In this document: positions 2 to 8,919 of the stretch, piece after piece
Layout of the letters: each line of letters begins with the position of its first letter
How positions within the stretch are numbered: the first letter of the stretch is position 1
Source of the DNA: Sporomusa sphaeroides DSM 2875
GTDB taxonomy: Bacteria > Bacillota > Negativicutes > Sporomusales > Sporomusaceae
NCBI RefSeq assembly: GCF_001941975.2
Contig: NZ_CP146991.1
Location: 1,179,501 to 1,243,500 of the forward strand
Direction of reading: 5' to 3'
Length of the DNA: 64,000 bases
Position numbers and translations under genes: made by a program
Notes under the pieces: generated by a model
What the model was told of the DNA's origin: nothing
The model's input: only the letters and a program-made list of their open reading frames with translations
Databases searched by the model: none

Positions 2-541
2 GTGGGCGCTTTGTTTTCGTCCCTGGTGGCATTGATCAAATATGTGGCCGATCCGTATGAACAGCTGCCACAAATCGTCTTCTGGCTGATGGGAACCCTG
101 TCGGGCGTGACGTATGAGAAGCTGGCGATGATCCTGCCACTCTACCTTCCGGCGATGACGGTCATTTTCCTGATGCGCTGGCGAATCAACATCCTGAGCA
201 TGGGGGATCAGGAGGCGAGATCCTACGGTGTGGATGTCAAAAAAAACAGGACCGTTGTCATCCTGGCTTGCTCCGTCCTGACCGCGCTGGTGGTATCCCT
301 GGCAGGGGTAATCGGCTGGGTCGGCATTGTGATTCCGCATCTGGCCAGGATTATTGCGGGGCATGACTTCCGTAAACTGGTGCCGGTCAGCCTGTCGCTG
401 GGAATCTGCTATGTATTGTTGATCGATGATATTTGCCGGAATGTAACGGCGGCGGAGATTCCGCTGGGAGTGGTAACAGGGATTATTGGTACACCGGTCT
501 TTATCTATTTTATTTATAAAGGCAAGGTGAGATGGGAATGA
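2..541 (+). CDS. FecCD-type ABC transporter permease, C-terminal part
   Basis: This is the C-terminal 180 residues of an inner-membrane permease of the FecCD/BtuC family, which imports ferric siderophores, heme or cobalamin. The gene runs off the left edge; complete family members are about 330 residues. Visible family signs are the loop with GDQEARSYGV (coupling region to the ATPase) and the segment GWVGIVIPHLARIIAGHD, followed by the last hydrophobic helices and the basic end KGKVRW. Its stop overlaps the start of the ATPase gene in an ATGA junction, so the two are translationally coupled. The cargo cannot be told from this fragment. Confidence 0.9.
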   Translation: MGALFSSLVALIKYVADPYEQLPQIVFWLMGTLSGVTYEKLAMILPLYLPAMTVIFLMRWRINILSMGDQEARSYGVDVKKNRTVVILACSVLTALVVSLAGVIGWVGIVIPHLARIIAGHDFRKLVPVSLSLGICYVLLIDDICRNVTAAEIPLGVVTGIIGTPVFIYFIYKGKVRWE

Positions 542-1323
542 AGCTGGAGGTACGGAACCTGACCTTTTCCTATGACGGTAGCAGAAAGATTTTTGAAGAT
601 ATCTCTTTTCAATATCACTCACCCCGGGTTTTCTGTATCCTGGGACCCAATGGAACAGGAAAAAGCACCTTGCTGCGGTGTATGATCAATGAATTGAGAG
701 CTCAAAGCGGCAGCGTCTTTATTAATGATGCACAAGCCGGCGCGTACAATGCCCGGGAGCTGGCCAGGATTATTGCCTATATCCCGCAGAATCACTACCC
801 TGCGTTTCCGTTTCCGGTCCTCGATATTGTCATGATGGGGCGGATTTCCCGGATGGGGTACCTGGCCAATCCGGGGAAAATGGAAAGAAAAATTGCTATG
901 GAAAAGCTGGAATTCCTCCAGATCGGACACTTGAAAGACAAACCGTATACGGACATATCCGGCGGAGAGCGGCAGTTGGTGATGCTTGCCTCCGCGCTGG
1001 CCCAGGAACCCGATCTCCTGATTCTCGACGAACCCACAGCCCATCTCGATTTTGGCAACCAGTATCGTTTTATCCAACTTGTTAAGCGGCTTGCAGCGAA
1101 TGGAACGGGCGTTTTAATGACTACGCATTTTCCGGACCATCCCTTGGAATTAAACAGCCTTACGGCGATTCTGAAAGACGGGAAAATGATTGGAATCGGC
1201 AATTCGGAGGAGTTGCTTACAGACCGGAACCTGACGGATTTATATAATATCCGGGTCAGTGTGGAAAGCGTTGGCAGGAAAAGAATTTGTGTGCCGGGAG
1301 GGTTTCATGAAGAATGTATCTGA
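538..1323 (+). CDS. ABC transporter ATP-binding protein, FecE/BtuD type
   Basis: This is the cytoplasmic ATPase that powers the upstream FecCD permease. Walker A (GPNGTGKST) lies near residue 38, the signature ISGGERQ near 140, and Walker B with D-loop (LLILDEPTAHLD) near 160, followed by the switch His in MTTHFPDH. I chose the ATG at 538, which overlaps the permease stop and sits about 7 bases after AAGGTGAG; an in-frame ATG at 532 would be too close to that site. The length (261 residues) is normal for iron-siderophore ATPases. The following methyltransferase overlaps its 3' end, so the three genes form one transcript. Confidence 0.93.
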   Translation: MKLEVRNLTFSYDGSRKIFEDISFQYHSPRVFCILGPNGTGKSTLLRCMINELRAQSGSVFINDAQAGAYNARELARIIAYIPQNHYPAFPFPVLDIVMMGRISRMGYLANPGKMERKIAMEKLEFLQIGHLKDKPYTDISGGERQLVMLASALAQEPDLLILDEPTAHLDFGNQYRFIQLVKRLAANGTGVLMTTHFPDHPLELNSLTAILKDGKMIGIGNSEELLTDRNLTDLYNIRVSVESVGRKRICVPGGFHEECI

Positions 1324-2056
1324 GCGTTCAAATGCTTACTGGTCAGGCAGAGCGCCGGAGTTCAGCGCTCTGCGGATGAATGAATTCGCGTCGGTCGCGC
1401 GGCAATCGTATGAAGATTTCCTGCTGGAATTTCTGCCGGCGAAGCAGGAACCGCTGGAAGCGCTGGATATCGGAACCGGCGCGGGATTTTTTGCGTTGAT
1501 TCTGCAAAAACTGGGATGCCGGGTAACGGCAGTGGATTTTTCCCCGGAAATGCTGGCGCAAGCCCGGAAAAACGCTACAGAAAGAGGGGGAAATGGAATT
1601 GATTTCAGACAAATGGATGCGCAGAACCTGACATTTGCGGACAATTCTTTTGATTTTGTTATTACCCGGAATGTAATGTGGATTGTCGAAGACGCTCAAA
1701 GGATGTATTTCCATATGCACCGGGTTTTAAGGCCGGGGGGAATCCTGCTGAATCTGGACGCCAATTACGGAAAGGCCTTTCGGGAAGCGGACCAAAACAA
1801 GGAAACGCCCACCCATCCGACCCAGACACTGGAGCAGCTGAGGGAGAGAAACGAGATTGCCGGAGCCTGTCAGATCGCATGGGAAAAGCGTCCCGGCTGG
1901 GACGTAGCGGTGCTGAGTGAATTAGGCGTACGTCATATCCGGATCGAGCCTGATCTGGACAGGAGACTTGGGCTGGCAGAAGTAAACCGGCCATACAGCA
2001 GCGCATCCACCAAAACGAAGGCCTCAATGTTTGCGGTGGCGGCCGAGAAAGCGTAG
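1307..2056 (+). CDS. Class I SAM-dependent methyltransferase
   Basis: This is a Rossmann-fold SAM methyltransferase of 249 residues. The SAM-binding motif I (LDIGTGAGFFALIL) is near residue 49 and the acidic motif II (VTAVDFSPEML) follows. I chose the ATG at 1307 because GGGAGG lies just upstream; a longer in-frame extension to 1259 would sit deep inside the ATPase gene. It overlaps the ATPase by 17 bases. Methyltransferases of this kind often follow FecCD importers in Firmicutes, but the methyl acceptor is unknown and the sequence does not reveal it. Confidence 0.85.
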   Translation: MKNVSERSNAYWSGRAPEFSALRMNEFASVARQSYEDFLLEFLPAKQEPLEALDIGTGAGFFALILQKLGCRVTAVDFSPEMLAQARKNATERGGNGIDFRQMDAQNLTFADNSFDFVITRNVMWIVEDAQRMYFHMHRVLRPGGILLNLDANYGKAFREADQNKETPTHPTQTLEQLRERNEIAGACQIAWEKRPGWDVAVLSELGVRHIRIEPDLDRRLGLAEVNRPYSSASTKTKASMFAVAAEKA

Positions 2057-2106: not shown

Positions 2107-2196
2107 TTAAAGGCTAAATACTGTTTTATGAAAAAGTATCTGTTTGCGGAAACAACTAATTGAAGTGACTTGTGGAAGCCTTAGGGGGTAATGGTT

Positions 2197-3834
2197 ATGC
2201 TTGATTTGATCATTAAACTTGATAATGAGTGCCGCATAAAAGCTTTGCAGCAAATTGGCAGACACCCTGTGCTTCTTGCAGATACCCAATTGATCGGGCG
2301 GGAAATTGACCATGTGCTGGGGGCTCCGCTTAAAGAGTACGGAATGGTAGAGCTGGATAATAATTTTTACCGGTATCAGTGCGCCGCTGAAGCAGGGGAA
2401 AAGGTGTTGTATGTAAGCAGTGACGGAGTGCTTCTTGAATTTTATCAGCAGATTAGCAGGCTTATGTCTGAAGGGGTTCAAGTATATGACCGGAATGGGT
2501 ACTTTTTGTTTGCCAATCCGGCAAGTGAAATGCTGGAGGGTTATGACAGCCAGGAATACCAGGGAAAACACTTGCTGGATATTTATGATGTCAACGAAGA
2601 ATATAGCACGGTTCTGACAATTTTAAGAACTAAAAAGCCGGTTGCCAATCGCTGTGACCGGTTTAAAATGAAAAATGGGACGACCTTAACCACCATAAAT
2701 TCCGGGTATCCATTAATCATTGATAATTATTTGTATGGGGCTGTTGTATTCGAAAGTGATTTGTCTGTATTAAAACGTTTGGAAAAACGGACCTTCAATC
2801 TGGAAGCATATATTGGCAGTACTGGACCTGACGGCCAAGCGGCTATGTATACATTTGATGATATTGTGCATGAAGCGGAAAGCATGCGGGAGCTTATTCA
2901 TTTTGCTAAAAAAGTTTCGCTTACTGACTCGGCAATTCTTATTGTGGGCGCCACTGGAACAGGCAAAGAGCTTGTGGCACAAGGTATTCATTCGTTTAGC
3001 CCCAGAAGATATAAGCCTTTTATTGATATTAATTGCAGTGCTGTGCCTGGTAATCTGTTTGAGAGTATTTTTTTTGGCACGGAAAAAGGGGCTTTTACAG
3101 GCAGTGTCAGCAAGCCGGGGCTGTTTGAAACAGCCAATGGCGGGACTATTTTTCTTGATGAAGTTAATTCCATTAGTCCGGAAATACAGGTAAAGCTTTT
3201 GCGGGTACTGCAGGAAAAACGTTTTCAGCGTATTGGCGGCAGCAAATATATACAATGTGATGTGCGAATTATTTCGGCAGCAAATGAGGACCTTAATGCG
3301 CTTATAAAGCAGCAAAAAATCCGTATGGATTTTTATTACCGGATATCGGCTATCAAAATGGATCTTCCTGATTTGAAGGACCGCTCTCAAGACAGTTTGC
3401 TGCTGGCTCGACATTTTTTGGATGAATTGTGTAAGCAATATCATCGGGAACAAGTAACGATTGCGCAAGAAGTACTTGCTGTGTTTGAGCAATACGAGTG
3501 GCCGGGAAACGTAAGAGAGCTTCATCATGTTATTGAATATGCTTTTAACCGTGCGGCAGATGATGCAAGCATATTGACACTTGATTGTCTTCCAGGTTAT
3601 TTAAGAGCGTTGGAAAATGAAGGCTGTGCAGCCTCGCAATGCCAAGACCTGAAAGGATATGCAACAGAAGGTTCAGGGACTTTTGATGAGCGTATGGAAC
3701 GGTTTGAATATGAATTAATCTGTCAGACGCTGACTGCGAACAGGGGAAATATTACTCATAGTGCCCGGCAGTTGGGTATGAGCAGACAGAGTCTGCAGTA
3801 CCGGATGAAGAAATTAAACATTTGCGAGTGGTAG
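2197..3834 (+). CDS. Sigma-54-dependent activator with PAS sensor (RocR-like), GAFTGS variant
   Basis: This is a cytoplasmic enhancer-binding protein that activates sigma-54 RNA polymerase by ATP hydrolysis. An N-terminal region of about 80 residues is unassigned, a PAS domain follows (around residues 80-200), then the AAA+ domain with Walker A GATGTGKE and Walker B FLDEV, and a C-terminal Fis-type helix-turn-helix (NITHSARQLGMSRQSLQYRM). The sigma-54 contact loop reads GAFTGS (3088-3105) where the consensus is GAFTGA. The ATG at 2197 has good spacing from GGGGG; the ATG at 2191 is too close. It is monocistronic and convergent with a second activator. Its target may be the orphan sigma-54 promoter at 4138 or the lyase operon; this is inference. 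Confidence 0.92.
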   Translation: MLDLIIKLDNECRIKALQQIGRHPVLLADTQLIGREIDHVLGAPLKEYGMVELDNNFYRYQCAAEAGEKVLYVSSDGVLLEFYQQISRLMSEGVQVYDRNGYFLFANPASEMLEGYDSQEYQGKHLLDIYDVNEEYSTVLTILRTKKPVANRCDRFKMKNGTTLTTINSGYPLIIDNYLYGAVVFESDLSVLKRLEKRTFNLEAYIGSTGPDGQAAMYTFDDIVHEAESMRELIHFAKKVSLTDSAILIVGATGTGKELVAQGIHSFSPRRYKPFIDINCSAVPGNLFESIFFGTEKGAFTGSVSKPGLFETANGGTIFLDEVNSISPEIQVKLLRVLQEKRFQRIGGSKYIQCDVRIISAANEDLNALIKQQKIRMDFYYRISAIKMDLPDLKDRSQDSLLLARHFLDELCKQYHREQVTIAQEVLAVFEQYEWPGNVRELHHVIEYAFNRAADDASILTLDCLPGYLRALENEGCAASQCQDLKGYATEGSGTFDERMERFEYELICQTLTANRGNITHSARQLGMSRQSLQYRMKKLNICEW

Positions 3835-3852
3835 TGTAAAATTTTTCTCGGT

Positions 3853-3873
3853 GACGCCAAATTATTTGGCGTC
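3853..3873 (+). terminator. Hairpin after the first sigma-54 activator
   Basis: A 9-bp perfect stem (GACGCCAAA/TTTGGCGTC) with a 3-base loop lies 19 bases after the activator stop. There is no strong T-run after it, so termination strength is uncertain. Confidence 0.5.
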
Positions 3874-4007
3874 TGTTATGTTTGAGTTGGTAACGGTTTT
3901 TGCTAAGGCTGATCTATAATGCAAAAAAAGTTGGCACTAATTATATTGTGAAGCTGGAAAAATGACGGTTTTGCTTGCTAGCAAATTGAAACAAAAGATA
4001 GTTTGGT

Positions 4008-4048
4008 GAAAAATGTGAGTAGTTTATTAAAAATTACTCACATTTTTT
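4008..4048. terminator. Bidirectional terminator between convergent regulators
   Basis: A 14-bp stem (4008-4021 with 4035-4048) starts with an A-run and ends with a T-run of six, so it can stop transcripts in both directions. It separates the two convergent sigma-54 activator genes. The sigma-54 promoter at 4138 lies beyond it, on the plus strand, and is not shielded from the downstream regulator gene. Confidence 0.75.
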
Positions 4049-4137
4049 CTGTTAAATTACAAGAAAAAGACAAAAAAGTGCTTAGATTCTGTATATTTAG
4101 TTACATGTTGCGTTTAACAAGGACTTGCAGCAATATT

Positions 4138-4153
4138 TGGCATGGATTTTGCA
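4138..4153 (+). promoter_or_regulatory. Sigma-54 (-24/-12) promoter with no gene downstream
   Basis: The sequence TGGCATGGATTTTGCA matches the sigma-54 consensus with GG at 4139-4140 and GC at 4151-4152, exactly 10 bases apart. It is nearly identical to the promoter at 5808. It points right, toward the 3' end of the minus-strand activator gene, so any transcript would start near 4165 and run antisense to that gene. No convincing plus-strand gene follows. Confidence 0.65.
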
Positions 4154-4219
4154 CTAGTAATGTAATATCCCTTAAAGTACGAAGTGGCATCCCTGCCTGT
4201 TGTTTTGGGGGCAAGTTCT

Positions 4220-5602
4220 TTATTCGGCAGCAAAAAGCACACTCTTAGTAATATTTAATTTTTTAATGCGAACCTGCAGATTTTGCCGGTGTATGCCCAG
4301 TGTCAAAGCAGCTTTGGTAATATTGCCTTTACTTGCTGTGAGAGCGTCGATAATCAGCTTACGTTCTAATTCGTCAAGTGTCTGAGGTAACGACTGTTTG
4401 GTTGTTTTAGGAAAGGCATTGGGTTGGGGCGACAGTACTTGTTTATGAAAATAATCAGGAAGATAGGCTGAACTTAACGCTGCCTCATTATCTGAAAAGC
4501 TAACCGCATTTTCCAACACATGGCATAGTTCGCGAACATTGCCTGGCCATGTATGGCCAAGCAATAGGTTTTCCAGATCGGCTGAAAGCCGGGTTATATG
4601 TTTGCCATAGACTTTATTAAATTTATTGATAAAGTAGCTGGCAAGCAGCAAAATATCCTCCCGTCGTTCGCGGAGCGGCGAAATAGTCAGATTCACAACA
4701 GCTATGCGGTAATAGAAGTCTTCCCGCATCTTGTGTTCAGCCAGCAGCTTGTGGCAGTCAATATTGGTAGAACTGATGATCCGGCAGTTTACGGTAGCTT
4801 CCTGATGGCTGCCCAGACGGCGGAACTTTTTCTCCTCAAGAATCCGCAGCATTTTTGCCTGCAGTACCAAACTCATGCTGTTGATCTCATCTAAAAACAA
4901 AGTGCCGTTTCCGGCCTGTTCCAATAACCCTGGCGTGTTTTCGGCGCCGGTAAAAGCACCTTTAGTTGTGCCAAAAATCATACTTTCCAGCAAGGTTTCA
5001 GGTATGGCTGCACAATTCAAGGCAACAAACGGCTGCGCCGCAGCGGGTCCGTAATTATGGATGCTTTGAGCAAGAATTTCTTTTCCTGTACCGGTCTCAC
5101 CTGTTAGCAATATGGGGGCTGAGCTAAGTGCCGCTTTTTTGGCTTTGTCAATAAGCCTGGTGAGTTGCGGGCTTTCGCCAACCAGACAGGAAAAATCGTA
5201 GCTGGTGCCGTTTTGCAGCCGATTGCTGCTGCCGCAGTAACTTTGTATTTGCTCCTGCAGCTGAGAGACCTTGTTAAGTAAATGGGCCATTTCAGTAATA
5301 TTTTTATTGATTGAACAAACGGCAACAATCTCACCTTCACGTTTAATGGGTATTACAGTTGACAGCATGTGTACTTCACGGTGATCTACGGTACGGTATT
5401 TTTTATATTTGTCAAAGGACGGTCTGCCTGTAATAAATACACTGCGCAGTTCTTCAAGCATAGCCTTTCGCTGGGAAGGCTCAAAACGTTCAATTCGATT
5501 ATTATAAAACAATTCGTCACCATGCTGATTGATGACATATACCGCATCTTGCATGTAATTGGCAATAGCCTGCAAATATAATGATTTATCAATAGTATCC
5601 AT
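4220..5602 (-). CDS. Sigma-54-dependent activator with PAS sensor (RocR-like), divergent from lyase operon
   Basis: This is a 460-residue sigma-54 enhancer-binding protein. An N-terminal PAS domain (about residues 10-125) precedes an AAA+ domain with Walker A GETGTGKE, an intact GAFTGA loop and Walker B FLDEI, followed by a Fis-type helix-turn-helix (NITKAALTLGIHRQNLQVRI). It is transcribed away from the lyase operon, with a 277-base divergent gap that contains the sigma-54 promoter at 5808. That layout makes it the likely activator of the lyase/BCCT/molybdenum hydroxylase operon, with the PAS domain as the probable substrate sensor. The ligand is unknown. Confidence 0.92.
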   Translation of the reverse strand: MDTIDKSLYLQAIANYMQDAVYVINQHGDELFYNNRIERFEPSQRKAMLEELRSVFITGRPSFDKYKKYRTVDHREVHMLSTVIPIKREGEIVAVCSINKNITEMAHLLNKVSQLQEQIQSYCGSSNRLQNGTSYDFSCLVGESPQLTRLIDKAKKAALSSAPILLTGETGTGKEILAQSIHNYGPAAAQPFVALNCAAIPETLLESMIFGTTKGAFTGAENTPGLLEQAGNGTLFLDEINSMSLVLQAKMLRILEEKKFRRLGSHQEATVNCRIISSTNIDCHKLLAEHKMREDFYYRIAVVNLTISPLRERREDILLLASYFINKFNKVYGKHITRLSADLENLLLGHTWPGNVRELCHVLENAVSFSDNEAALSSAYLPDYFHKQVLSPQPNAFPKTTKQSLPQTLDELERKLIIDALTASKGNITKAALTLGIHRQNLQVRIKKLNITKSVLFAAE

Positions 5603-5807
5603 ATTCTACCTACCCACTCCCAATAATAACAACATTTTATCCAATATACGCCTGGGAGTAAAGAGGTAATGCAATAAAATAATGCGCAACACTTTGATGC
5701 GGTTATAAACAATGCTTGCTGCTGCTTAACAGCGTAGTTTTCAGAGATGTTGCCTTACATACAGGGATTCCCAGGGGGCAATGGCTTATCTGTTGTAAAC
5801 CTTACAT

Positions 5808-5823
5808 TGGCATGAATTATGCA
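5808..5823 (+). promoter_or_regulatory. Sigma-54 promoter of the lyase operon
   Basis: The sequence TGGCATGAATTATGCA has GG at 5809-5810 and GC at 5821-5822 with the required 10-base spacing, and lies 57 bases before the first lyase ATG. A divergent sigma-54 activator gene ends its upstream region, which is the usual arrangement. About 200 bases of intergenic DNA upstream (5603-5807) could hold the activator sites; I could not define a repeat there with confidence. Confidence 0.8.
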
Positions 5824-5879
5824 ATACCAAGTAAAAAACAATGCATGAATATATATTGTGAACCGGAGGGTGCAGAGGC

Positions 5880-7382
5880 ATGAATAAAGTTTTTCTGAGT
5901 GGCGCGGAACTGACAACCGCACAGGTATTACAGATAGCCCGGTGTGGGGCGCCTGTAGAGATTACTCCCACGGCCCGGCAGCGCCTGGCTGACGCCCGCC
6001 AGCTGGTATTCGACCTGGTGGACGCCGATTATCCTATCTACGGGTTTAATGTGGGAGTGGGTCAAAACAAGGATAAAAAGGTGTTCAAGCAATTTTTCGG
6101 GGAGTATAACTGCAACCTGATCCGATCTCATTGCATAGGTGTTCCGCCTTATGCCAGCGACGAGGACGTTCGGGCAACCATGGTGGCCCGGCTTAACACC
6201 ATGCTTACCGGCTGCTGCGGCGTTTCCCCCGAAATTCCCGAAATGTATATGGCCATGCTCAATCACGGCATACATCCCCTGATTCCCGAAAAGGGGTCGG
6301 TAGGCCAGGCGGATATAGGCCTTATTTCCCATATAGGCCTTGCCATTATCGGCGAGGGGAACGTGCGGATGAACGGCAGGGAAATGCCCGCCACCGAGGC
6401 TTTTGCCAAGGTTGGTCTGAAGCCGCTGACCCTTGGTCCCAAGGACGGCCTTGCCATTGTCAGCTCCAATGCCCTGAGTGCCGGGGCTTGCGCCCTGCTG
6501 CTGGAGGATATTGAAGAACTGCTGGATTTGAGTGAGCTGATTTACGCTATGTCTCTGGAAGGCCTCAACGGCAATACCGCCCCCCTGGATGACCGCAACC
6601 ACGCTCTGCGCCGCTTTACCGGACAGCGGGAAAGTGCCAGGCGTATCAGCCGCTATCTTCAGGGCAGCTATATCTATGAAGTGGACCCCAAAAAGGCAGT
6701 ACATGACCCCCTTTCCTACCGCAGCACTCCCCAAATTACCGGGGCGGCCAGGGAAATGCTGGCCTATACTAAGGAGCGGCTGGAAATCCAGCTCAACACC
6801 ACCGACGATAACCCCTGCCTGCTGCTGGAAGACCGGCAGATAAGTCCCTCCGCCAACTTTGACCCCCTCAACTGGGTGCTGGGGGTAGAGAGCTTGGCTA
6901 TCGCTTTGTCCCATGTATCCAAAACCGCCTGTATGCGGCTTATTAAGCTGGTCACCCCCAACTACACCAATCTCCCCCGTTTTTTGGCCCCGGAGGTGGA
7001 TGTTCTCTGCTTCGCCACTCTGCAAAAAACCTTTACCAGCCTGGATGCGGAAATCCGCCATCTGTGCAATCCCTGCTCAATGGACACCTTCAGTCTGGCG
7101 GGGGATATGGAGGACACTTCCACCAACGCCACCTATGCTGTGCAGAACTTACGGCGGATATACCGGAACCTGCACATCATTTTCGCCATTGAGCTGATAC
7201 ATGCGACACAGGCCATGGAATACCGGAAAAAGCTGTCTTTCGGCCAATATACCGGCAAGGCGTTCCAAATAGTCCGCAAGGTACTGCCCTTTTATAAAAC
7301 CGACCGCAATATCACCCAGGACATTCAAACGGTATGCGAGTTGCTGCAAAGCGGCGAGTTGACCGCCCTGATCCGGGAGTGA
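5880..7382 (+). CDS. HAL/PAL-family lyase lacking the MIO triad (ergothionase-like)
   Basis: This 500-residue cytoplasmic protein has the histidine ammonia-lyase fold throughout. In ordinary family members the loop GSVGASGDLAPLAH self-cyclises at Ala-Ser-Gly into the MIO electrophile. Here residues 139-145 read GSVGQAD, so the triad is replaced by Gln-Ala-Asp and MIO cannot form. The N-terminal catalytic-loop region reads YGFNVGVGQNKDKK rather than YGVNTGFG. Known MIO-less relatives include ergothionase, which eliminates trimethylamine from ergothioneine. With a BCCT transporter in the same operon, a betaine substrate is likely; this is inference. The ATG at 5880 follows GGAGG, and the second lyase starts 13 bases downstream. 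Confidence 0.88.
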   Translation: MNKVFLSGAELTTAQVLQIARCGAPVEITPTARQRLADARQLVFDLVDADYPIYGFNVGVGQNKDKKVFKQFFGEYNCNLIRSHCIGVPPYASDEDVRATMVARLNTMLTGCCGVSPEIPEMYMAMLNHGIHPLIPEKGSVGQADIGLISHIGLAIIGEGNVRMNGREMPATEAFAKVGLKPLTLGPKDGLAIVSSNALSAGACALLLEDIEELLDLSELIYAMSLEGLNGNTAPLDDRNHALRRFTGQRESARRISRYLQGSYIYEVDPKKAVHDPLSYRSTPQITGAAREMLAYTKERLEIQLNTTDDNPCLLLEDRQISPSANFDPLNWVLGVESLAIALSHVSKTACMRLIKLVTPNYTNLPRFLAPEVDVLCFATLQKTFTSLDAEIRHLCNPCSMDTFSLAGDMEDTSTNATYAVQNLRRIYRNLHIIFAIELIHATQAMEYRKKLSFGQYTGKAFQIVRKVLPFYKTDRNITQDIQTVCELLQSGELTALIRE

Positions 7383-7395
7383 GAGGAGGAATAGT

Positions 7396-8919
7396 ATGAC
7401 TGTCATTACATTGGGCTCCCCGCTGAATCTGGAAGAATTTCTTCAAATCGCCCGCTTTGGGGCAAAGATTGAATTTTCTCCTGAATATTGCCGGCGGGTT
7501 ACCAGGGCCCGCCAACTGATCGAAAAAGCTGTTGATGAAAACCGGGTGATGTATGGTGTTACCACTGGTTTTGGTTCCCTGAGCACCCGGGTAATCAACG
7601 CCGAGCAGGTAGAGCAGCTGCAGCGCAACATTGTGCTTTCCCATTCTACCTCGGTAGGAGCACCCTACACCGTGGAGGAAGCCCGGGCCACCATGCTGAT
7701 GGTGTTGCAAAATCTGGGCAGGGGCCACAGCGGCGTACGACTGGAATTGCTGGAATTGCTGCGGGAAATGCTCAACCGCAACGTTACCCCCTGGATGCCC
7801 AGGGAGGGTTCGGTAGGGTATTTGGCCCCCGAAGCCCACCTGGCGCTGGTGCTCATGGGCGAAGGGCAGGCATATGTTGAGAGTCGATTGATGTCCGGGA
7901 AAGACGCCCTGGAACAGGCGGGGCTTGCTCCCCTGCCGCTGGGCGCTAAGGAGGGTCTGGCACTGGTGTCCGGCACCACCACGGTGACGGCACTGGCAAG
8001 TCTTGCGTTGTACGATATGATTCAGGCGGCCAAAAGTGCCGACATCATTGGGGCGGTTTCCCTGGAGGTGCTCAGGGGTGTTATGCGGGCGTTTGATCCG
8101 CGGGTTATGTCGGTGCGCCCCCACCCGGAGCAGGACGGTACTGCCGAAAATGTGAGGCGTATTCTCTCCGACTCTGCTGTTCTCAAACACTTTGAGGGTA
8201 CAAGATTGCAGGACGCTCTGTCCTTGCGATGTATTCCCCAGCTTCACGGCGCCTCTAAAAAGACCTTTTATGACGCAAGGCGAACGCTGGAAATTGAGAT
8301 GAACTCTTGCTGCGACAACCCCATCATCTGGGATGACAACGGCGATGCCGACGTGATTTCCGCCTGCAACTGCGACTCGGCTTATGTAGGCATTGCCATG
8401 GACAGCGCCGCCATCGCCTCCACTATGCTGGCCAAAATGTCGGAGCGGCGCAACAACCGCATCATTGATGAGAGCCTGTCAGGCTATCCGGCATTTCTGG
8501 TGGATAATCCGGGGCTGAATTCCGGCCTGATGCTTGCCCAGTACAGCCAGGCGGGACTGTTGGGCGACATGCGTATTCTCTCCACCTCCGCTGTCATCGA
8601 CAACACCCCCACCTGCTGTAACCAGGAGGATTATGTGGCTATGGGGTACAATGCTGCGAAAAAGGCGCTGCAGGTAGTGGAAAAGTTGGAGTATATTCTG
8701 GCGATCGAATTGCTTTCAGGCTATCAGGCACAGCAATTTTTAGACCCAACTCTTGCCCGTAGCAAGGTAACAGCTCGCATTCTGGAGGACATCGGCAAAT
8801 CGGTACCTGTGATGAAGGAGGATCTTTTTCTACACCCTCACATCGAGTTTCTGCGGGATATGATTCATACCGGAAGGCTGGTTGAACTGGCCGAGGAAAT
8901 CATCGGCCCTATGAAATAG
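7396..8919 (+). CDS. Second HAL/PAL-family lyase with the MIO triad deleted
   Basis: This 507-residue paralogue keeps more of the canonical family sequence than its neighbour, including YGVTTGFGSLSTR near residue 53 with the catalytic Tyr. At residues 138-146 it reads GSVGYLAPE, which aligns with GSVGASGDLAPLAH only if three residues including Ala-Ser-Gly are deleted. It therefore should not contain MIO. The later blocks SLRCIPQLHGA and NQEDYVAMG are well kept, so the fold and probably an active site are intact. It may be the betaine-cleaving enzyme or a partner or isomer-specific relative of the first lyase. A GAGGAGG site precedes the ATG, and the operon continues to the BCCT gene. Confidence 0.88.
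   Translation: MTVITLGSPLNLEEFLQIARFGAKIEFSPEYCRRVTRARQLIEKAVDENRVMYGVTTGFGSLSTRVINAEQVEQLQRNIVLSHSTSVGAPYTVEEARATMLMVLQNLGRGHSGVRLELLELLREMLNRNVTPWMPREGSVGYLAPEAHLALVLMGEGQAYVESRLMSGKDALEQAGLAPLPLGAKEGLALVSGTTTVTALASLALYDMIQAAKSADIIGAVSLEVLRGVMRAFDPRVMSVRPHPEQDGTAENVRRILSDSAVLKHFEGTRLQDALSLRCIPQLHGASKKTFYDARRTLEIEMNSCCDNPIIWDDNGDADVISACNCDSAYVGIAMDSAAIASTMLAKMSERRNNRIIDESLSGYPAFLVDNPGLNSGLMLAQYSQAGLLGDMRILSTSAVIDNTPTCCNQEDYVAMGYNAAKKALQVVEKLEYILAIELLSGYQAQQFLDPTLARSKVTARILEDIGKSVPVMKEDLFLHPHIEFLRDMIHTGRLVELAEEIIGPMK

What the first reader, a model, noticed from the sequence alone, without database searches (positions are those of the whole stretch)
4138..4153. Orphan sigma-54 promoter antisense to a sigma-54 activator
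A near-perfect -24/-12 site, almost identical to the lyase-operon promoter, lies between the convergent regulators and points into the 3' end of the second one with no gene after it. It could make an antisense RNA that tunes the activator, or be the remnant of a lost gene.
Basis: partly seen in the sequence, partly recalled or inferred. Interest (0 to 1): 0.6.

Follow-up and report, generated by a model that had tools for sequence, protein, structure and literature searches.

The report
Stranded promoter of a lost operon
A bacterial promoter that in related species switches on a transporter-and-lyase operon stands here without that operon, still looking intact and joined to the tail of a neighbouring regulator gene, most likely left behind by a genome rearrangement.

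Summary
The -24/-12 site at 4138-4153 (+) is real. The strict pattern occurs 43 times in this genome (a Sporomusa species by kinship) against 2 for the reversed control. Only two of the 43 lie outside ORFs of 200 aa or more with no ORF of 120 aa or more behind them: this one and one at 4.505 Mb.

Relatives explain it. In 5 of 5 reg1 loci examined a -24/-12 site lies 273-304 nt after the reg1 stop (302 here), followed by a transporter and a histidine-lyase-like gene. In Sporomusa sp. KB1 that operon and hut genes fill the 13.8 kb between reg1 and reg2. Here reg1's promoter region runs straight into reg2's 3' end, junction about 4175-4212. KB1's symporter has at best a 24% match in this genome, its lyase a 64% one.

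So "remnant of a lost gene" is supported. A conserved antisense function is not: 0 of 5 relatives with reg2 have such a site aimed at it. The promoter shows no visible decay and reg1, its probable activator, is intact, so it may still fire and make antisense transcript. Whether that matters is untested and, I think, unlikely.

The parts
2191..3834 (+). reg1: PAS / sigma-54 AAA+ / HTH_8 activator; probable activator of the orphan promoter
   Evidence: Pfam (PAS at 21.8 bits, just under its cut-off of 22.6); 82-83% identical to the Sporomusa sp. KB1 and S. silvacetica orthologues; reading frame, Walker motif and HTH intact
3853..3873 (+). Conserved dyad GACGCCAAATTATTTGGCGTC just after reg1; probably reg1's terminator (RNA hairpin), possibly also an operator
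   Evidence: Hairpin -12.9 kcal/mol, z -3.2; core GCCRRATNATTTGGC in 6 of 6 reg1 intervals
3920..3936 (+). Candidate upstream activator site of reg1, TGCAAAAAAAGTTGGCA (TGC-N11-GCA), about 217 bp upstream of the -24/-12 centre; binding not shown
   Evidence: Present in 6 of 6 reg1 intervals (the motif was drawn from them); at least 2 mismatches in the 320 bp upstream of each of the other 42 strict sites
4009..4047 (.). 17-bp inverted repeat with A/T flanks, terminator-like on both strands, not seen in the five aligned relatives; could end reg2's mRNA
   Evidence: (z -6.1 on +, -5.3 on -); not reported by the terminator scan
4138..4153 (+). Orphan sigma-54 promoter (-24/-12), TGGCATGGATTTTGCA; predicted start near 4165
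4176..4211 (.). Interval holding the junction: reg1-promoter homology ends by about 4175, reg2-side homology ends about 4212
4220..5602 (-). reg2: sigma-54 activator, convergent with reg1; neighbour that the orphan promoter now points into
   Evidence: Pfam; 76-81% identical orthologues in G001, G002, G004, G005 and 64% in G011
5808..5823 (+). sigma-54 promoter of the lyase operon that reg2 presumably controls (comparison site)
   Evidence: reg2-type word TGCAATAAAATAATGCGCAA upstream, found in 6 of 6 reg2/lyase intervals from which it was drawn

Best explanation
The site is the promoter of reg1's own target operon, standing without that operon because of a rearrangement. In relatives reg1 sits just upstream of, and in the same direction as, an operon for a transporter and a histidine-ammonia-lyase-like enzyme, and presumably activates it by binding about 220 bp upstream of a -24/-12 promoter. 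In this genome that operon is absent, so the promoter region abuts the 3' end of reg2. Shown: homologous position, promoter homology, and absence of the operon. Inferred: that the operon was once here and was lost, and that reg1 still binds and can fire the promoter, giving a short-lived antisense transcript into reg2 with little effect.
For: Five reg1 loci examined: G001 = Sporomusa sp. KB1, G008 = S. silvacetica, G005 = S. malonica (names), G006, and G003 whose contig begins inside reg1. In 5 of 5 the interval after reg1 aligns with the window's up to about the start point, with TTGGCA at 303, 303, 273, 304 and 303 nt after the reg1 stop against 302 here. Behind it lie a 470-aa ORF (SSS-like symporter in KB1; not family-searched in the other two), a 180-187-aa ORF and a lyase in G001, G008 and G003 (lyase cut by the contig end in G003), and a BCCT-type transporter plus lyase in G005 and G006. 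In KB1 reg1 and reg2 are 13.8 kb apart with the operon and hutU-hutI-ftcD-fchA-mcp between them. In the window's genome KB1's symporter has at best a 24% match and KB1's lyase at best 64%, in reg2's operon. The reg1-type dyad is exact here and at least 2 mismatches off at the other 42 strict sites.
Against: The course of the rearrangement is not settled. Of the relatives read, only KB1 has close orthologues of both regulators on one contig; S. malonica has both on different contigs, and G003, G006 and G008 have no close reg2 match (37-44%). G004 has a 41-45% reg1-like gene in the KB1 position. reg1's left flank also differs here (methyltransferase at best 36% in 8 relatives), so reg1 with its promoter may have been moved beside reg2 rather than the middle deleted; the hut genes sit 0.8 Mb away here and I did not polarise which place is older. 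A relic should decay, yet 92 of 116 columns (79%) invariant in the other lineages are kept here, within the 73-88% of lineages that have the operon, and reg1 shows no clear acceleration; this fits a recent loss or a promoter still in use. KB1's 180-aa protein and the 513-aa BCCT-type protein of G005/G006 were not searched for in this genome.
Confidence: 0.92

Rival explanations
1. Functional antisense control: reg1 (or reg2 itself) fires the promoter, and the antisense RNA or convergent transcription lowers reg2, coupling two lyase pathways.
For: Promoter, candidate activator site and reg1 are intact without visible decay. Among the places checked, the dyad stands before a -24/-12 site only here. 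reg1-type and reg2-type upstream words are 3 mismatches apart in the window, so cross-activation is conceivable. The scan shows no terminator-like site on + between 4165 and 4578.
Against: 0 of 5 reg2-bearing relatives have a -24/-12 site aimed at reg2 within 1 kb; 5 of 5 reg1 loci have an operon behind the homologous site; RNA structure no better than shuffles (z 0.65 and 1.25). The 3-mismatch similarity of the two words is weak: 7 of the 42 other strict sites also have a match with 3 or fewer mismatches to the reg1-type word.
Confidence: 0.1
2. Promoter of an unrecognised small RNA or small protein gene between 4165 and about 4400.
For: sigma-54-driven regulatory RNAs exist (Qrr, PMC10162802; title and start of abstract seen in the listing).
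Against: No Rfam match reaches its gathering score in 3700-6000; the two weak ones cover the 4009-4047 hairpin. The longest + ORF beginning there is 61 aa with a TTG start, overlapping reg2. No stable fold. The DNA past about 4175 does not align convincingly behind the relatives' promoters.
Confidence: 0.04
3. Chance match with no promoter history.
For: The looser pattern is not enriched in the 64-kb window; 3 of 43 strict matches lie inside ORFs with nothing behind them.
Against: 43 versus 2 genome-wide and homologous position in 5 of 5 reg1 loci.
Confidence: 0.01

Closest known systems
Intergenic antisense sigma-54 binding sites of E. coli (numbered OA01 to OA08; PMC4591121, passages seen)
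   Same: sigma-54 sites outside genes in antisense orientation, with no properly oriented gene close behind
   Different: Here the site is tied by synteny to a specific missing operon and a specific activator; there are no binding data here
HiaR regulon, hiaL-hyp-hutH, Clostridium (PMC6615313, passages seen)
   Same: Activator of a transporter / hypothetical / hutH operon, the layout behind reg1 in KB1, S. silvacetica and G003
   Different: Orthology of reg1 to HiaR, of the transporters, and of the upstream motifs was not tested; in the window the operon itself is absent
sigma-54-dependent regulatory RNAs such as Qrr (PMC10162802, listing only)
   Same: RNA output from a sigma-54 promoter without a protein gene
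   Different: No evidence for a structured or conserved RNA here

Membership tests
sigma-54 promoter | -24 GG and -12 GC elements at canonical spacing (consensus TGGCAY-N5-TTGCW; recalled) | tested here: met
   TGGCATGGATTTTGCA
sigma-54 promoter | Activator site upstream, mostly 100-250 bp away in Clostridiales (range from PMC6615313) | tested here: inconclusive
   reg1 adjacent and candidate dyad about 217 bp upstream; binding not shown
sigma-54 promoter | Transcript start about 12 nt past the -12 element | not testable with these tools
   no RNA data
cis-antisense regulator of reg2 | Arrangement kept in relatives with the same target | tested here: not met
   0 of 5 relatives, 1 kb searched in each
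cis-antisense regulator of reg2 | Antisense transcript that changes target level | not testable with these tools
   no RNA data
HiaR-type hiaL-hyp-hutH regulon | Activator next to a transporter-hyp-hutH operon | tested here: not met
   layout present in G001, G008 and G003; not in the window, where KB1's symporter and lyase have only 24% and 64% matches
HiaR-type hiaL-hyp-hutH regulon | Orthology to HiaR and shared upstream motif | not tested
   HiaR sequence and motif not seen

The most novel reading that the evidence does not exclude
After its operon was lost, reg1 was kept because its stranded promoter, now aimed antisense into reg2, became its main output: an accidental rearrangement created a new cross-talk switch in which one lyase-pathway activator (or reg2 itself, through a related upstream site) dampens reg2 by convergent transcription.
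Probability: 0.08. Interest if true: 0.75.

Novelty: new member of a known kind. Interest (0 to 1): 0.33.

Why it matters
It is a traceable example of where antisense-pointing 'orphan' sigma-54 promoters can come from: a rearrangement separates a promoter from its operon while the activator and its site persist. Such cases can show whether stranded promoters decay or are taken over for new regulation. For annotation, it warns that a near-perfect -24/-12 site is not evidence of a gene behind it.

Tried and rejected
Rfam search of 3700-6000: two hits below their gathering scores at the 4009-4047 hairpin, read as chance. Dyad at 3853-3873 as an activator site: ambiguous; the RNA hairpin tolerates G-U pairs across relatives, so I read it mainly as reg1's terminator. 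TGCCRAATWATTTGGCA with up to 3 mismatches in the own genome: 141 matches against 63 for the reversed control, too loose to use. Other reg1 targets by the 17-bp dyad: 2 exact and 7 one-mismatch places, 1 for the reversed control. I fetched the other exact place and 5 of the 7 one-mismatch places; by the pattern none has a -24/-12 site with at most one mismatch within 320 bp behind it; one (L101) has a two-mismatch candidate overlapping the dyad; two places were not read. The idea that reg1's lyase simply moved into reg2's operon: in a tree of 16 lyases the window's lyaseB falls outside the group of five lyaseB genes (KB1, S. silvacetica, S. malonica, G006, G004; local support 0.999), but on a long branch, so a moved and fast-evolving copy is disfavoured, not excluded; G003's partial lyase was left out. 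Relative-rate tests for reg1: window against KB1 and S. silvacetica chi2 0.05-0.47; against S. malonica 0.05 with outgroup G004 but 6.2 with outgroup G006, which I discount because S. malonica and G006 seem to group together by identity; against G006 2.2 with outgroup G004. Literature: a search for stranded or relic sigma-54 promoters listed 7 papers, none on point by title and start of abstract; Sporomusa with ergothioneine gave 0.

Full report
OBSERVATION. The site TGGCATGGATTTTGCA is at 4138-4153 on the + strand, in the gap between reg1 (2191-3834, +) and reg2 (4220-5602, -), both sigma-54 activators with an AAA+ and a Fis-type HTH domain. The strict form TGGCAYN5TTGCA occurs 43 times in the 5.0-Mb genome against 2 matches of the reversed pattern. 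I read 2.4-2.7 kb around the other 42 and 3 kb of the window for this one. By mechanical ORF calling, 38 of 43 have an ORF of 126 aa or more (some cut by the end of the stretch) beginning 9-328 nt downstream on the same strand; five of these 38 sites also lie inside some ORF of 200 aa or more and may be mis-scored. Three have nothing of 60 aa behind them and lie inside long ORFs. Two are outside ORFs of 200 aa with nothing of 120 aa behind them: 4138 and one at 4,505,257. So the site is far beyond chance, and its lack of a gene is unusual.

WHAT RELATIVES HAVE. A search of 60 genomes (own included) with reg2 gave close orthologues in G001, G002, G004, G005 and G011. A search of 12 genomes (own included) with reg1 gave G001, G005 and G006 at 75-83% and G004 at 45%; G008, which was not in that set, came, and the reg1 tail in G003 from the DNA match and alignment. 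Contig lengths identify G001 as Sporomusa sp. KB1, G008 as S. silvacetica DSM 10669 and G005 as S. malonica DSM 5090. In all five reg1 loci the DNA after reg1 aligns with the window. TTGGCA begins 302 nt after the reg1 stop in the window and 303, 303, 303, 273 and 304 nt in G001, G008, G003, G005 and G006. G006's site has G as its last base and was missed by my first pattern. What follows is an operon-like row of genes: a 470-aa ORF, a 180-187-aa ORF and a lyase in G001, G008 and G003 (the last cut by the contig end), and a BCCT-type transporter with a lyase in G005 and G006. KB1's 470-aa protein resembles sodium/solute symporters (TIGR00813, 88 bits, under its cut-off of 184). KB1's lyase passes NF006871 (histidine ammonia-lyase subfamily) but not TIGR01225 hutH.

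THE REARRANGEMENT. In KB1, reg1 ends at 2,206,827 and reg2's 3' end is at 2,220,604, in the same relative orientation as here. Between them are the reg1 operon and hutU, hutI, ftcD, fchA and a chemotaxis-like gene. KB1 is the only relative read with close orthologues of both regulators on one contig; S. malonica has them on two contigs, with hutU-I-ftcD-fchA beside reg2, and G004 has a 41-45% reg1-like gene in the KB1 position. In the window's genome the hut genes are at about 0.366 Mb, KB1's symporter has at best a 24% match, and KB1's lyase matches four genes at 64% (in reg2's operon), 43%, 41% and 29%. Promoter-side homology runs to about 4175 and reg2-side homology to about 8 nt past its stop (about 4212), so the junction is in between. 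Whether the middle was deleted or reg1 with its promoter was moved is not settled; reg1's left-hand neighbour here has no close relative either (methyltransferase at best 36% in 8 relatives).

IS IT STILL ALIVE? The -24/-12 elements are intact; two spacer bases differ from all five relatives, and in the start region (4155-4175) 6 of 12 columns invariant in the relatives are kept, five of the losses being one gap. A 17-bp dyad TGC-N11-GCA at 3920-3936 is present in 6 of 6 reg1 intervals; the motif was drawn from them. At the other 42 strict sites the best match in the 320 bp upstream has 2 mismatches. Its distance from the promoter, about 217 bp, is within the 100-250 bp usual in Clostridiales (PMC6615313, passage). 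Over the whole interval up to 4175, of columns invariant in the other lineages the window keeps 92 of 116 (79%), against 85-88% (KB1 group), 73% (G005) and 78% (G006). reg1 is intact, shares the GAFTGS motif with its four complete close orthologues and shows no clear acceleration. So there is no visible decay, which fits either a recent loss or continued use; these data cannot separate the two. An inverted repeat at 4009-4047, not seen in the aligned relatives, could terminate reg2's mRNA on the - strand; 5 of the 24 conserved columns lost here lie in it.

ANTISENSE READING. A transcript from about 4165 would enter reg2's 3' end at 4220. The predicted RNA is no more structured than shuffles (z 0.65 and 1.25), shows no convincing coding frame, and the first terminator-like site on + past the start is at 4578. 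In 0 of 5 relatives with reg2 is a -24/-12 site aimed at it within 1 kb. The antisense layout was thus seen only in this genome and is best read as a by-product of the rearrangement. reg1-type and reg2-type upstream words are similar (3 mismatches in the window, 2-4 in relatives), so cross-activation is possible but untested; 7 of the 42 other strict sites reach 3 or fewer mismatches to the reg1-type word too, so this likeness is weak evidence.

COMPARISON. Intergenic antisense sigma-54 sites are known: an E. coli ChIP-seq study numbers them OA01 to OA08 (PMC4591121, passages). The operon missing here resembles in layout the HiaR-controlled hiaL-hyp-hutH operon of Clostridium (PMC6615313, passages); orthology was not tested. 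I file this as a new member of a known kind, with an unusually clear origin.

Noticed in passing
L088 1258-1273 (G000:C1:4505257-4505272, minus): A second intergenic strict -24/-12 site with no gene behind it; the 3' end of a convergent 319-aa ORF lies 134 bp on, and a GC-rich hairpin-like stretch (by eye) lies in between, so a small RNA is possible.
   Followed up: partly
window 5880-7382: lyaseA matches ergothionase (PDB 6s7j) at 476 bits, next best 204; with a BCCT transporter and molybdenum-hydroxylase-type genes behind it, reg2's operon may serve ergothioneine or a related betaine.
   Followed up: partly
window 5880-8919: lyaseA and lyaseB have GC 0.55 against 0.43-0.44 for reg1 and reg2; four of five reg2-bearing relatives have one different lyase here (46-48% to lyaseA), so both may have been acquired.
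   Followed up: partly
window 2191-3834: reg1 and its four complete close orthologues carry GAFTGS in place of the usual GAFTGA loop motif.
   Followed up: no
window 4009-4047: A 17-bp near-perfect inverted repeat where the aligned relatives have an imperfect sequence; looks like a newly formed bidirectional terminator.
   Followed up: partly
window 2-2056: Genes that look like an ABC transporter pair and a methyltransferase left of reg1 (read by eye); the methyltransferase has at best a 36% match in 8 relatives, so this flank also seems lineage-specific.
   Followed up: no
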